DNA of 64,000 bases from Halobacterium jilantaiense (GTDB lineage Archaea; Halobacteriota; Halobacteria; Halobacteriales; Halobacteriaceae): contig NZ_FOJA01000001.1 of the NCBI RefSeq assembly GCF_900110535.1, positions 1,426,001 through 1,490,000 of the forward strand, read 5' to 3'. Positions 28,540 through 43,145 of the stretch are shown here, piece after piece; position 1 is the stretch's first letter; each line of letters begins with the position of its first letter. The notes beneath the pieces are model-generated. The model ran no database searches and was not told the origin of the DNA. It saw nothing but the letters and a program-made list of their open reading frames with translations. A program made the translations under genes and the position numbers.

Positions 28540-30168
28540 ATGGTCAGGTACGCAGTCGGGGCATGGGTCGGCCGAAAGTACAGCCGACGCATCGGAGCAG
28601 CACTGGCAGTGACGCTCGCGGGAACACTGGCGTTCGCCGGCGTGTTCGGCGCGAGCGCCGCGTGGGGGAGCGGGACCGGGCTGACGGCACTGTCGGCAAC
28701 CACGTTCGTGCTTACGCTCCACCTCGGCGTGTTGAGCATCGTGCTCGCGGGGAACGCCAGCGTCGAACTGCGGCGGCTGACCGATGCGGCGGACGCAATC
28801 GAGTCCGGGGACTTCGAGGCCAGTCCCGCGGTCGACCGGAACGACGAGTTCGGGCGGCTGGCGGACGGCTTCGACGCGATGCGGGTGTCGCTACGCGAAG
28901 CGTTCGCGGACGCCGAGCAGTCACAGGAGGAAGCAGAACGCGCCCAGAAGCAAGCCGAGGAAGCCCGCGAGGACGCAGAGGACGCGCGAGCCGACGCCGA
29001 ACGCCGAAACGAGTCGTTGCTGGAGAGCGCCGACGAGATCGGCGCGGCGATGACGGCGGCGGCGGACGGCGACTTCACGCACAGACTGGACGGCGAGCGC
29101 GACGTCGACGCCATCGCACGCATCGCCGCAGCCTACGAGGAGATGGCTGTCGGGCTGTCGGGCACGCTCGAAGAAGTGCTGGAGTTCGCGGCCGCCGTCG
29201 AGTCGGCGAGTGACGCCGTCGCGACGGACGCCGCCGACGTCGAACGACAGCACGCCTCGCTCGCCACCGACATCCGCGAACTCGCCGGGGACATCGAGTC
29301 CCAGGCAGAACAGCTCGACCAGGTGGTGTCGGAGGCCGACAGCCTCGCGGCGACCATCGAGGAGGTGGCAGCGACGACCGACGAAGTCGCGGAACGCGCC
29401 AGCGAGGCGTCGACAGTCGGTGACGCCGGCTCCGAGCGTGCGGGGGAAGCCGTCGACGCCATCGAGGAAATCGAGGACGTGATCGGGGAGCTCGCCGTGC
29501 TCGTCGGCACCCTCGACGAGCGGATGGACGAGGTCGCGGGGACGACGGACATCATCGACGACATCGCGGAGCAGACGAACATGCTCGCGTTGAACGCGAA
29601 CATCGAAGCCGCGCGTGCAGACCAAGACGGCGACGGCTTCGCCGTCGTCGCCGACGAAGTGCGGGCGCTCGCGGCGGAGACACAGGACGCTATCGACGAG
29701 ATTTCTGTCACTGTCGCCGACGCCCGCAGCGACGTCGACGAGGTGACGGAGACGATGGAGGCCGGCAGCGAGAAGATCTACACGAGCGTGTCGACCGTGA
29801 ACGAGACCGGCGACACCATCCAGGACCTCACGGACGCCGTCAACGAGGTCGACACCGCGATGGACGACATCGCCGACGCGACCGACGACGGCGCGGCAGC
29901 CACCGAGGAGGTCGCGGCGTCTGTCTCTGACGTCAGCGAGCGTGCCGTGGAGATTGCAGAGCGCGCCAACCGACTCGCAGCGACAGCCGACGACACGGCC
30001 GAGACGATGGGCGATGTTCGCGAGCGAGCGGACGGGCTCGTCGAACGCACGGCCGAACTGCAGGCGGCCCTGGAGGCGTTCGAGACCCGGGACGTAGCCG
30101 ACACGGAGACCGCCGAACTGGACGAGTCGGGCGGGGTAGCCGCCGACACGGTGGGTGACGATGATTAG
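28540..30168 (+). CDS. Htr-type methyl-accepting transducer with two TM helices
   Basis: A 542-residue chemo/phototaxis transducer. TM1 is about residues 18-42 and TM2 about 48-70, joined by only about five residues (GSGTG), so there is no extracellular ligand domain. Two HAMP domains follow (about 71-122 and 160-215), then a long coiled-coil signalling domain with the conserved tip [17 protein letters not shown] starting at residue 344, which contacts CheA/CheW. This is the layout of HtrI, the transducer of sensory rhodopsin I. The next gene, overlapping by 8 bp, encodes an opsin-like membrane protein, as in htrI-sopI and htrII-sopII operons. It probably receives its signal laterally from that partner. 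Confidence 0.9.
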
Positions 30169-30859
30169 CGAGAGCGTCGTCCACGCCGTGGTGGCGGTGG
30201 TGTACACCGTCGCGACCGTCGGCTGCCTCTGGGCGCTCCAGCGAGTAGACGAGACACGCCAGCAGTACCTCCGGCTCTCGACACTGACAATCGCCGTCGG
30301 TGCCGTCACCAGTGTCTCGCTGGTGTTCGGTGTCGGGTCACTCACCATCAACGGCTACGAGGTCGCGCTCCCGTCGGTAGTCAACAACCTCGTCGCGTAC
30401 CCGGTGCTGTGGGTGATCACTGCGATGCTGGCCGACGTGGACGACCGACTGATCGCGGCCGCCGCTCTGGCTCCGTTCGTGCAAGTGGTGGCGTTCTGGC
30501 TGTCACCGATCTACGGTGGGGTCGTGGCGATCGGGAGTCTCGTCGTCGTCGTCGGGAGCCACCTGTTGCTCGCGGTCCTGTTCCTCGGCCGAATCTGGGA
30601 CGCCAGCAGCAGTGTTCCCGAGGAACGACGGCTGCTCCACTGGAAAGCACGGAACCTCCTGCTGTTCCTCATCGGGATGTTCATCGTGTTCTCGTTCCTC
30701 TCCGTGGCAGGGGCGTTCAGTGCGTTCGGGATGCTCGTCCTGAACCAGTACGTCTCGGTGCTGATTCGCGTCGGGTTCGCCGGGTTCCTGTTCGCGAACG
30801 TGGGCGCGCTCGGCGACGCCACCACTGCGGGCCGAGACGTGACTGCGGCCGGCGACTGA
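30161..30859 (+). CDS. Opsin-related seven-helix protein lacking the retinal lysine
   Basis: A 232-residue protein with seven hydrophobic segments. Hand alignment to sensory rhodopsin I and bacteriorhodopsin is good in helix C ([21 protein letters not shown] against the VNG...RYIDWLVTTP region), the E-F loop ([16 protein letters not shown]) and helix G ([12 protein letters not shown]). Key residues are replaced: bacteriorhodopsin Lys216 to Arg203, Asp212 to Ser199, Asp85 to Asn75, Arg82 to Ser72, and helix F Trp/Tyr/Pro are absent. Pro81 matches Pro91. It should not bind retinal by a Schiff base. ATG 30161 overlaps the transducer stop; a GTG six bases earlier is possible. Likely the sensory partner of that transducer. 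Confidence 0.75.
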
Positions 30860-41234: not shown

Positions 41235-41333
41235 GCCAGAACACTGCGACCGGAGCGGCATAGTGGTGGCCGAACCGGCAGCCCGTGAAGACACACCCCG
41301 GAACTTTTGTGGACTGGCAGAATAGTGGAACCT

Positions 41334-42191
41334 ATGACACGTCGGCTCACCGCCCTGGCCTGTGTCCTCCTCGTCGCGACCGCCGGCTGTGCCGGTATCA
41401 CTGCACAAGACGACGCGACGACGACCGCCCCCACCCAAACGACGGCCGAGACGACCGCGACAGCGACGACCGAGTCAGTCGAACAGCTCGCGCCCGGCGT
41501 GACCACCGACGGCGTCGAAGACGCCCGAGCGCTCGCCGACGCCCACCAGAGCGCCCTCAGAGACGGCGGCTTCGTGAAGCACTCGAACGCCACTCGGACG
41601 AACGAGTCAGTGATAGCCGCCCGGAACCAGACGTTCGCCGTCGAGAACGAGTCGCTGTGGCGGCTGACGACGACCGGCGAGGGCGTCGGCGTTGCCCTCG
41701 GCGTCACGAACGGAACCTACGACACGTACGCCGACGGCAGTCGGGTCCTCTGGCAGCTCGAAAACGACACCGCCGGGAACACGTCGTACGGCGTCATGTC
41801 GATCACCATCGACGGCGACGACCAGCCCGTCCCGCCAAACCAGACATTCGAACAGGATACCTACCAGTCGCTGTACGAGCGCAGCCACGTCTACACGCTC
41901 GCCGCGAACGCCGACAGCGTCGAGGCGCTGGATGGCGGCGACGGAGCAGTCGAGTTGTCCGGCAGCACCAGCGAACTGTCGACGCGATTCACTCGGAGTG
42001 GCGACGTCGAGTTCACCGCGACCGTCTCGGCGGACGGCCTCGTGCAGTCCATCGAGCTGTCCTATCCGTCCGAGAACGCGACCGTCGAGCGCTCGCTGTC
42101 CTTCGACACCGACGTCACCGACCCCGTCGAGCAGCCCGAGTGGTACGAGACCGCGCTGAACGAGACTGACCTGAACGAGACGACCGCGTAG
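41334..42191 (+). CDS. DUF7537-type lipoprotein, copy 1
   Basis: A 285-residue secreted lipoprotein: signal peptide MTRRLTALACVLLVATAGC with lipobox Cys19, a Thr/Ala-rich linker (TTTAPTQTTAETTATATT), then a beta-rich domain of the LppX/LolA-like type (VEFTATVSADGLVQSIELSY). The N-terminal 60 codons and the last 30 codons are nearly identical in DNA to the next gene, while the middle differs strongly. Many Asn-X-Ser/Thr sites suggest N-glycosylation. Function unknown. The family name is from memory. Confidence 0.8.
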   Translation: MTRRLTALACVLLVATAGCAGITAQDDATTTAPTQTTAETTATATTESVEQLAPGVTTDGVEDARALADAHQSALRDGGFVKHSNATRTNESVIAARNQTFAVENESLWRLTTTGEGVGVALGVTNGTYDTYADGSRVLWQLENDTAGNTSYGVMSITIDGDDQPVPPNQTFEQDTYQSLYERSHVYTLAANADSVEALDGGDGAVELSGSTSELSTRFTRSGDVEFTATVSADGLVQSIELSYPSENATVERSLSFDTDVTDPVEQPEWYETALNETDLNETTA

Positions 42192-42284
42192 AGTAGCGGA
42201 ACAGGACCGTTCGACCTGCCCAGACGGCTGGTGTGGCAGGCGACACCCACGTTACTTTTGAGTTCTGGAGAAGTAACCGCATTC

Positions 42285-43145
42285 ATGACACGTCGGTTCG
42301 CCGCCCTGGCCTGTGTCCTCCTCGTCGCGACCGCCGGCTGTGCCGGTATCACCGGTCAAGACGACGCGACGACGACCGCCCCCACCCAAACGACGGCCGA
42401 GACGACCGAAGCGACGACCGCGACAGCGACGACCGAGTCCGCCGAACAGCTCGCGCCCGGCGTCACGGCCGACGGCGTCGAGGATGCGCGGGTGCTGGCG
42501 GACGCCCACCTCGCCACCGTCAGAAACCAGTCGCTCGTCACTTACGACCGGGTCCGTCGGACGACCGCGTCAGGCACCGCGTTCCGGAACGCGTCACTCG
42601 CCATGACGAACGAATCCCACTGGCAGTACAACGTTTCCAGTGACGGGATGCAGGTCGGGCCGATGTTCGGAGCCGAGGCGTTCGAGACGTACGCCGACAG
42701 TGAACGCATGCTCTGGCGGACCGAGAACGAGTCGACCGTCGAGTACGGCGCGTACACCTTCCGGGCAGAGGACGAGACTGTCGTGGTGCCGCCCGCCCAG
42801 GTGTTCGAGCGGAGCTACCGCGGGCAGTACGGGCGCGACCTCGTCTACACGCTCGCAAGCCGCGCCGACGCCGTCGAGGTGCCCGAAGACGACGAGAGCG
42901 CAGTCAGGCTGTCGGGGGGCGCGGACCGACTTCCACTCGGCCGCGAGGAGACGACGAACGCCGAGTTCACGGTGACTGTCGCCGCCGACGGGCAGGTCCG
43001 CTCCATCGAGATGGTTTACGAGCGCGGGAACGCGACAGTGGCGCGCTCCGTGTCCTTCGACACGGATGTCACCGACCCCGTCGAGCAGCCCGACTGGTAC
43101 GAGACCGCGCTGAACGAGACTGACCTGAACAAGTCCGACGCGTAG
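42285..43145 (+). CDS. DUF7537-type lipoprotein, copy 2
   Basis: A 286-residue tandem paralogue of the preceding gene, 93 bp downstream. It shares the signal peptide and lipobox (MTRRFAALACVLLVATAGC), the Thr-rich linker and the C-terminal DTDVTDPVEQPDWYETALNE. The central domain has diverged. A TATA-like GTTACTTTTGAG lies about 30 nt before ATG 42285, so it has its own promoter. The same motif order near copy 1 (GGAACTTTTGTG) shows that the promoter was duplicated too. Confidence 0.8.
   Translation: MTRRFAALACVLLVATAGCAGITGQDDATTTAPTQTTAETTEATTATATTESAEQLAPGVTADGVEDARVLADAHLATVRNQSLVTYDRVRRTTASGTAFRNASLAMTNESHWQYNVSSDGMQVGPMFGAEAFETYADSERMLWRTENESTVEYGAYTFRAEDETVVVPPAQVFERSYRGQYGRDLVYTLASRADAVEVPEDDESAVRLSGGADRLPLGREETTNAEFTVTVAADGQVRSIEMVYERGNATVARSVSFDTDVTDPVEQPDWYETALNETDLNKSDA

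What the first reader, a model, noticed from the sequence alone, without database searches (positions are those of the whole stretch)
28540..30859. Transducer paired with an opsin-like protein that has lost the retinal lysine
An Htr-type transducer and a seven-helix protein overlap by 8 bp in the same order as htrI-sopI and htrII-sopII. The second protein aligns with sensory rhodopsin I through helices C, E-F and G, yet by hand alignment Lys216 is Arg203, Asp212 is Ser199, Asp85 is Asn75 and Arg82 is Ser72 (bacteriorhodopsin numbers first). It cannot form the retinal Schiff base. The intact frame and gene order argue against decay. The pair may be a taxis receptor for a non-covalent ligand, membrane state or another chromophore. 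From memory, type 1 opsin relatives without the lysine have been noted in haloarchaea, but I know of no assigned stimulus.
Basis: partly seen in the sequence, partly recalled or inferred. Interest (0 to 1): 0.88.

Follow-up and report, generated by a model that had tools for sequence, protein, structure and literature searches.

The report
Blind opsin paired with taxis transducer
A salt-loving archaeon of the genus Halobacterium carries a rhodopsin-shaped protein that has lost the lysine needed to hold the light-catching pigment, next to a motility-signalling partner; it belongs to a family described in 2016, very probably senses something other than light, and what it senses is still unknown.

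Summary
MCP (28540-30168) and a seven-helix opsin-like protein (30161-30859) overlap by 8 bp. The opsin model (pLDDT 88.6) matches sensory rhodopsin II (SRII)/HtrII structures best, and the Schiff-base lysine is Arg203. The pair is not a new kind: it falls in a fully supported clade matching 'group A' opsin-related proteins (ORPs) of Becker et al. 2016 (PMC4915679), who already proposed non-light taxis receptors and saw no pigment with two purified ORPs.

New here: (1) in 142 compared opsins, ORPs are one clade; 47/50 group A members directly follow a transducer. (2) The transducers lack an extracellular domain but keep N/H at the HtrII site that contacts ORP Tyr199, which is invariant in group A. 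(3) 21/68 Arg-ORP genomes lack retinal synthase (Brp/Blh); 20 of these lack light-type opsins too. (4) Among 68 Arg-ORPs, only this one lacks an acid at 75/76, the former counterion site. (5) In Halobacterium the pair is a module between DUF5781 and EF-2, absent there in 10 of 13 species.

Best explanation: a retinal-independent CheA-coupled taxis receptor using the SRII-to-HtrII relay. Stimulus unknown.

The parts
28540..30168 (+). HtrII-like transducer (methyl-accepting chemotaxis protein): two membrane helices, HAMP, signalling hairpin; 542 aa
   Evidence: Pfam HAMP and MCPsignal; best PDB match of residues 1-140 is HtrII of the SRII complex, E 2.2e-12
28588..28755 (+). membrane part of the transducer: about residues 17-42 (TM1) and 50-72 (TM2) with a short loop of about 8 residues, no extracellular domain
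   Evidence: sequence; same spacing in 14 named relatives; aligned to HtrII; boundaries estimated by eye
28720..28722 (+). His61 codon, at the HtrII Asn74 position that contacts SRII Tyr199
   Evidence: N or H in every ORP-linked transducer in which the position could be read
28744..28899 (+). HAMP domain (residues 69-120)
   Evidence: Pfam PF00672
29461..29937 (+). MCP signalling domain (residues 308-466)
   Evidence: Pfam PF00015
30161..30859 (+). opsin-related protein (ORP), 232 aa, seven helices, no retinal lysine
   Evidence: AlphaFold2 and Foldseek; profile search; tree
30161..30168 (+). 8-bp overlap of the two genes; the same overlap is the commonest arrangement in group A relatives
30383..30388 (+). 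Asn75-Asn76 codons (AAC AAC), former counterion region; the only Arg-ORP of 68 without an acid here
30749..30751 (+). Tyr197 codon (pSRII Tyr199, the transducer contact), invariant in group A
30767..30769 (+). Arg203 codon (CGC) at the Schiff-base lysine position

Best explanation
The two genes are a self-contained receptor-transducer unit: a group A haloarchaeal opsin-related protein and its own HtrII-like transducer. Shown here: the fold, the loss of the lysine, the clade, the gene pairing, the kept transducer-contact position, and independence of retinal in relatives. Inferred: the ORP binds a non-covalent ligand or ion in its remodelled membrane pocket, around the invariant Arg at the old Schiff-base site and (in relatives) an acid on helix C. 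Binding would shift helices F and G as light does in SRII, rotate TM2 of the transducer through the Tyr199-Asn/His contact, and change CheA output and swimming reversals. The stimulus is not known.
For: Fold: (SRII/HtrII best). Homology. Clade: (ORPs against 26 Lys opsins 99%; group A, 50 rows, all Arg, 100%). Pairing: (47/50 group A and 18/18 of a second Arg clade directly follow an MCP). Sensor must be the ORP or the membrane: (transducers lack an extracellular domain). Contact: (N or H at HtrII Asn74 in every readable ORP-linked transducer; Tyr199 invariant), against Gly or Ser in the other clearly HAMP-type receptors of this genome (read by eye). Constraint: dN/dS 0.16/0.85; pocket positions more conserved than other membrane positions, entropy 1.25 against 1.68, P 0.014. 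No retinal needed: (21/68 Arg-ORP genomes lack Brp/Blh, 20 of these also lack Lys-type opsins; group A examples G145, G190, G118, G268, G113, G335). CheA: domain found in 67/68 Arg-ORP genomes against 233/324 others. Literature: no pigment from two purified ORPs (PMC4915679).
Against: No ligand or stimulus has been shown for any ORP, and Becker et al. [quoted passage not shown] The complex could not be modelled here. Three pocket residues typical of group A (Asp76, Leu174, Ala178) and Asp189 are changed on the window's branch, so its site may be re-tuned or relaxed. The CheA and conservation statistics are not corrected for shared ancestry.
Confidence: 0.7

Rival explanations
1. The ORP senses a membrane state (potential, pH or lipid condition) rather than a small molecule: the buried Arg, with or without its acid partner, moves in the field or changes protonation and shifts the transducer.
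For: Neither protein has an extracellular domain; a buried charge is invariant in group A. A transducer for membrane potential (MpcT) is known in Halobacterium salinarum (title cited in PMC2857822).
Against: No homology between MpcT and this transducer was tested; the pocket positions are more conserved than other membrane positions, which fits a binding site at least as well.
Confidence: 0.15
2. The ORP has no stimulus of its own and acts as a structural or damping subunit for its transducer or for other sensory rhodopsins in mixed complexes.
For: This genome has three Lys-type opsins. A regulatory role was proposed for a lysine-less bacterial rhodopsin (Rh-noK, cited in PMC10308929).
Against: 20 Arg-ORP genomes have no Lys-type opsin and no Brp/Blh at all, and each pair brings its own transducer.
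Confidence: 0.08
3. It is still a light receptor that holds retinal or a carotenoid without a covalent bond.
For: The fold is that of SRII, and this host has Brp/Blh.
Against: The aromatic cage is gone (W76, W171, Y174, W178 are N, I, F, S here). Relatives live without Brp/Blh. Two purified ORPs gave no 480-580 nm band (PMC4915679).
Confidence: 0.04
4. It is a decaying copy of a sensory rhodopsin gene.
For: Four positions that are usually conserved in group A (76, 174, 178, 189) changed on the window's branch only.
Against: Open frame, dN/dS about 0.19, no significant rate excess over the nearest homologue (26 against 17 unique changes), and an old clade with invariant residues.
Confidence: 0.03

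Closest known systems
Group A haloarchaeal opsin-related proteins (Becker et al. 2016, PLoS One, PMC4915679)
   Same: Arg at the lysine position, rhodopsin fold, immediate HAMP/MCP neighbour, Tyr199 kept, same clade type
   Different: Asn76 instead of Asp76, Phe174 instead of Leu, Ser178 instead of Ala, and no acid at 75 or 76; found in Halobacterium, a genus not named for ORPs in the parts of the paper read here
Sensory rhodopsin II with HtrII (Natronomonas pharaonis, PDB 2f95, 5jje)
   Same: fold (TM 0.83-0.89), transducer type, gene order, Tyr199 contact position
   Different: no retinal lysine, no counterion Asp, no aromatic retinal cage; HtrII Asn74 is His61
Group B haloarchaeal ORPs
   Same: no lysine, rhodopsin fold, often next to an MCP
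   Different: Leu or other hydrophobic residue at 205, Gly75 and Tyr76; only 19 of 41 directly after an MCP in this sample
Betaproteobacterial Rh-noK and freshwater FArhodopsins (as described in PMC10308929)
   Same: rhodopsin relatives without the lysine
   Different: next to a proteorhodopsin or flotillin gene, not a transducer; other rhodopsin branches

Membership tests
Haloarchaeal ORP, group A | microbial rhodopsin fold | tested here: met
Haloarchaeal ORP, group A | Schiff-base lysine replaced by Arg | tested here: met
   Arg203
Haloarchaeal ORP, group A | lies in the Arg clade, apart from the Lys opsins and the Leu ORPs | tested here: met
   support 100. That this clade equals Becker's group A rests on matching residues and linkage; their sequences were not placed in the tree
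Haloarchaeal ORP, group A | next to a HAMP/MCP transducer | tested here: met
Haloarchaeal ORP, group A | typical (not defining) pocket residues W76D, Y174L, W178A | tested here: not met
   Asn76, Phe174, Ser178 here; all three retinal-cage residues are lost, but to other letters
Haloarchaeal ORP, group A | no retinal pigment | not testable with these tools
   shown for two other ORPs in PMC4915679
Sensory rhodopsin (SRI/SRII photoreceptor) | retinal-binding lysine on helix G | tested here: not met
   Arg203; it is therefore not filed as a photoreceptor
HtrII-type transducer | two membrane helices, HAMP, MCP signalling domain, similarity to HtrII in the membrane part | tested here: met
HtrII-type transducer | Asn74 contact to receptor Tyr199 | tested here: inconclusive
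   His61 at this place; N or H in all readable ORP-linked transducers; contact itself not modelled

The most novel reading that the evidence does not exclude
The old Schiff-base/counterion switch survives as a fixed Arg-acid pair in Arg-type ORPs and is the sensing element. In this protein the acid is gone and an anion such as chloride takes its place, as in halorhodopsin, making a rhodopsin-shaped salt or ion taxis receptor.
Probability: 0.1. Interest if true: 0.85.

Novelty: new member of a known kind. Interest (0 to 1): 0.5.

Why it matters
If ORPs are non-light taxis receptors, the type 1 opsin fold is a general sensor scaffold, much as animal opsins are one branch of the GPCRs. The idea has stood untested for a decade as far as the held literature shows. 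A pair in Halobacterium, the genus of the standard phototaxis host, with a clean pair-free site in sister species, makes deletion and transfer tests practical. The Arg-acid pattern gives a first concrete residue-level hypothesis.

Tried and rejected
The search for related loci with the single protein found nothing; an alignment was needed. Pfam and NCBIfam do not recognise the protein; only 3 of 14 close relatives touch Bac_rhodopsin, weakly. The covariation of residue 205 with the acid at 75/76 (67/68 Arg with acid; 42/42 Leu/Val/Phe/Ala/Thr without) could not be tested as independent events: the tree gives only 1-2 independent pairs. Faster evolution of the window copy: 26 against 17 unique changes, not significant by my own Tajima-type reckoning. 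Gene neighbours as a clue to the stimulus: they differ between genera, so no clue. A link to MpcT was considered but not tested for lack of its sequence. The sigma-70 style promoter scan does not apply to archaea. One Pfam call on unrelated window coordinates failed on frame. Spudich et al. 1997 was not held.

Full report
CHECK OF THE OBSERVATION. The window lies at C1:1426001-1490000 of a 2.95 Mb haloarchaeal genome whose genus mates include Halobacterium sp. TGN-42-S1 and Hbt. bonnevillei (matching contig lengths and positions). The transducer (28540-30168) and the opsin-like gene (30161-30859) overlap by 8 bp. The transducer carries HAMP and MCPsignal, and its membrane part matches HtrII of the SRII complex (2f95_B, E 2.2e-12). 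The opsin-like protein alone is nearly invisible to sequence search: no Pfam family, and four PDB hits at E 1.9-9, all SRII. As a profile with 13 relatives it finds SRII at E 3e-13 over the full length. The AlphaFold2 model is confident (pLDDT 88.6, pTM 0.84), and its nearest solved structures are SRII and SRII/HtrII complexes (E 2e-8, TM 0.83-0.89).

RELATIVES. A profile search of 392 genomes of the order found opsin-type matches in 261; 100 regions were fetched and 144 distinct opsin sequences aligned to pSRII. The tree of 142 of them splits cleanly: 26 Lys opsins on one side (99), all lysine-less proteins on the other. Inside the latter, a clade of 50, all Arg at position 205, has support 100 and holds the window protein, next to its Halobacterium homologues and a Halorussus group. 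A second clade of 18 Arg proteins, some His, Thr and Val proteins, and a large Leu/Val/Phe group make up the rest. Sampling was partial and the quick tree method was used.

PAIRING. In the Arg clade of the window, 47 of 50 directly follow an MCP gene; a 48th (Hbt. bonnevillei) is broken by contig ends, with the MCP beside DUF5781 on one contig and the ORP beside EF-2 on another. All 18 of the second Arg clade do too; only 19 of 41 in the Leu-type group. Sixteen named loci show the same arrangement in Halobacterium, Halomicrobium, Haloarcula, Halosimplex, Halorientalis, Halorussus, Natrialba and Natrarchaeobius. The genes around the pair differ between genera. In Halobacterium the order GSDH-DUF5781-EF-2 is present in 12 of 13 genomes (GSDH was not seen in the fetched stretch of G006); in 10 of 13 DUF5781 and EF-2 lie directly side by side and in three the pair sits between them. 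So it behaves as a two-gene module; gain or loss cannot be told apart.

INTERFACE. The transducers have only a short loop between TM1 and TM2, so the sensing part must be the ORP or the membrane. At the HtrII Asn74 position, every ORP-linked transducer in which the column could be read has Asn or His (His61 here), while opsin-linked transducers of Lys opsins have N, S or G. The other clearly HAMP-type receptors of this same genome have Gly or Ser there, by my own reading. In the receptor, Tyr199 is invariant in group A. The Tyr199-Asn74 hydrogen bond and its change on activation are described for SRII/HtrII in PMC5292967.

POCKET. The retinal cage is gone: W76, W171, Y174, W178 are Asn, Ile, Phe, Ser in this protein. 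The replaced pocket is still constrained in the group: mean entropy 1.25 bits at 20 retinal-pocket positions against 1.68 at other membrane positions, permutation P 0.014 (the pocket list came from my own knowledge of pSRII). Tyr80, Arg205, Tyr199 and K162-x-R164-N165 are invariant. Of 68 Arg-ORPs, 67 have an acid at 75 or 76; the window protein (Asn75, Asn76) is the one exception, and no Leu/Val/Phe/Ala/Thr-ORP has one. Among Lys opsins the single exception is L017, which by its sequence pattern I take to be a halorhodopsin, where chloride replaces the acid (own knowledge). These are few evolutionary events and are offered as a hypothesis, not a test.

RETINAL. Of 68 Arg-ORP genomes, 21 lack the retinal-forming Brp/Blh family, and 20 of those show no Lys-type opsin: either no Bac_rhodopsin hit or only hits as weak as the ORPs themselves (the weak hits were judged by E-value and listed place, not each inspected). 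G346 is the exception. The group includes Halorussus-family G145, close to the window protein. This extends the eight species of Becker et al. The window genome itself has Brp/Blh and three Lys opsins. The CheA dimer domain was found in 67 of 68 Arg-ORP genomes against 233 of the other 324 (Fisher P 6.5e-8), without correction for ancestry.

INTEGRITY. Against the nearest homologue dN/dS is 0.163/0.852 by YN00 (0.183/0.447 by NG86). The window copy has 26 unique changes against 17 in its sister; they include D76N, L174F, A178S and D189S. That could be re-tuning or mild relaxation.

WHAT IS KNOWN. Becker et al. 2016 (PMC4915679) described 48 ORPs in 80 genomes, groups A (Arg) and B (Leu), transducer linkage, loss of the retinal cage, transcription, lack of a pigment in two purified proteins, and proposed non-light taxis receptors. 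Later held papers cite this without assigning a stimulus. The window pair is therefore a new member of a known kind, in a genetically useful genus, with an unusual acid-free site.

MECHANISM. Most likely a retinal-independent receptor-transducer unit using the SRII-to-HtrII relay. Shown: genes, fold, pairing, contact position, retinal independence in relatives. Inferred: complex formation, ligand or ion binding in the pocket, CheA control. Not known: the stimulus.

Noticed in passing
window 41325-42191 and 42231-43145: Two neighbouring lipoprotein genes with nearly the same N-terminal sequence (ALACVLLVATAGCAGIT), a likely tandem duplication.
   Followed up: no
L163:3503-4240: A Haloferacaceae MAG ORP with Tyr at the lysine position, right after an MCP-like gene.
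   Followed up: no
L084, L090, L094, L100: His-type ORPs without an MCP directly upstream; the nearest same-strand MCP is about 2.7 kb downstream.
   Followed up: no
L096 (G280), L060 (G155): Two group A ORPs look broken or short: L096 is split into two frames; in L060 the match runs past stop codons at its C-terminal end and no MCP was found upstream.
   Followed up: no
L069 and L083 (G335): A 99% complete genome with two Arg ORPs, one paired with an MCP, but no hit to the CheA dimer domain.
   Followed up: no
window 30857-30859 and relatives: Many ORPs of both groups end in a short Ala/Gly-Asp tail (-AD or -GD) before the stop codon.
   Followed up: no
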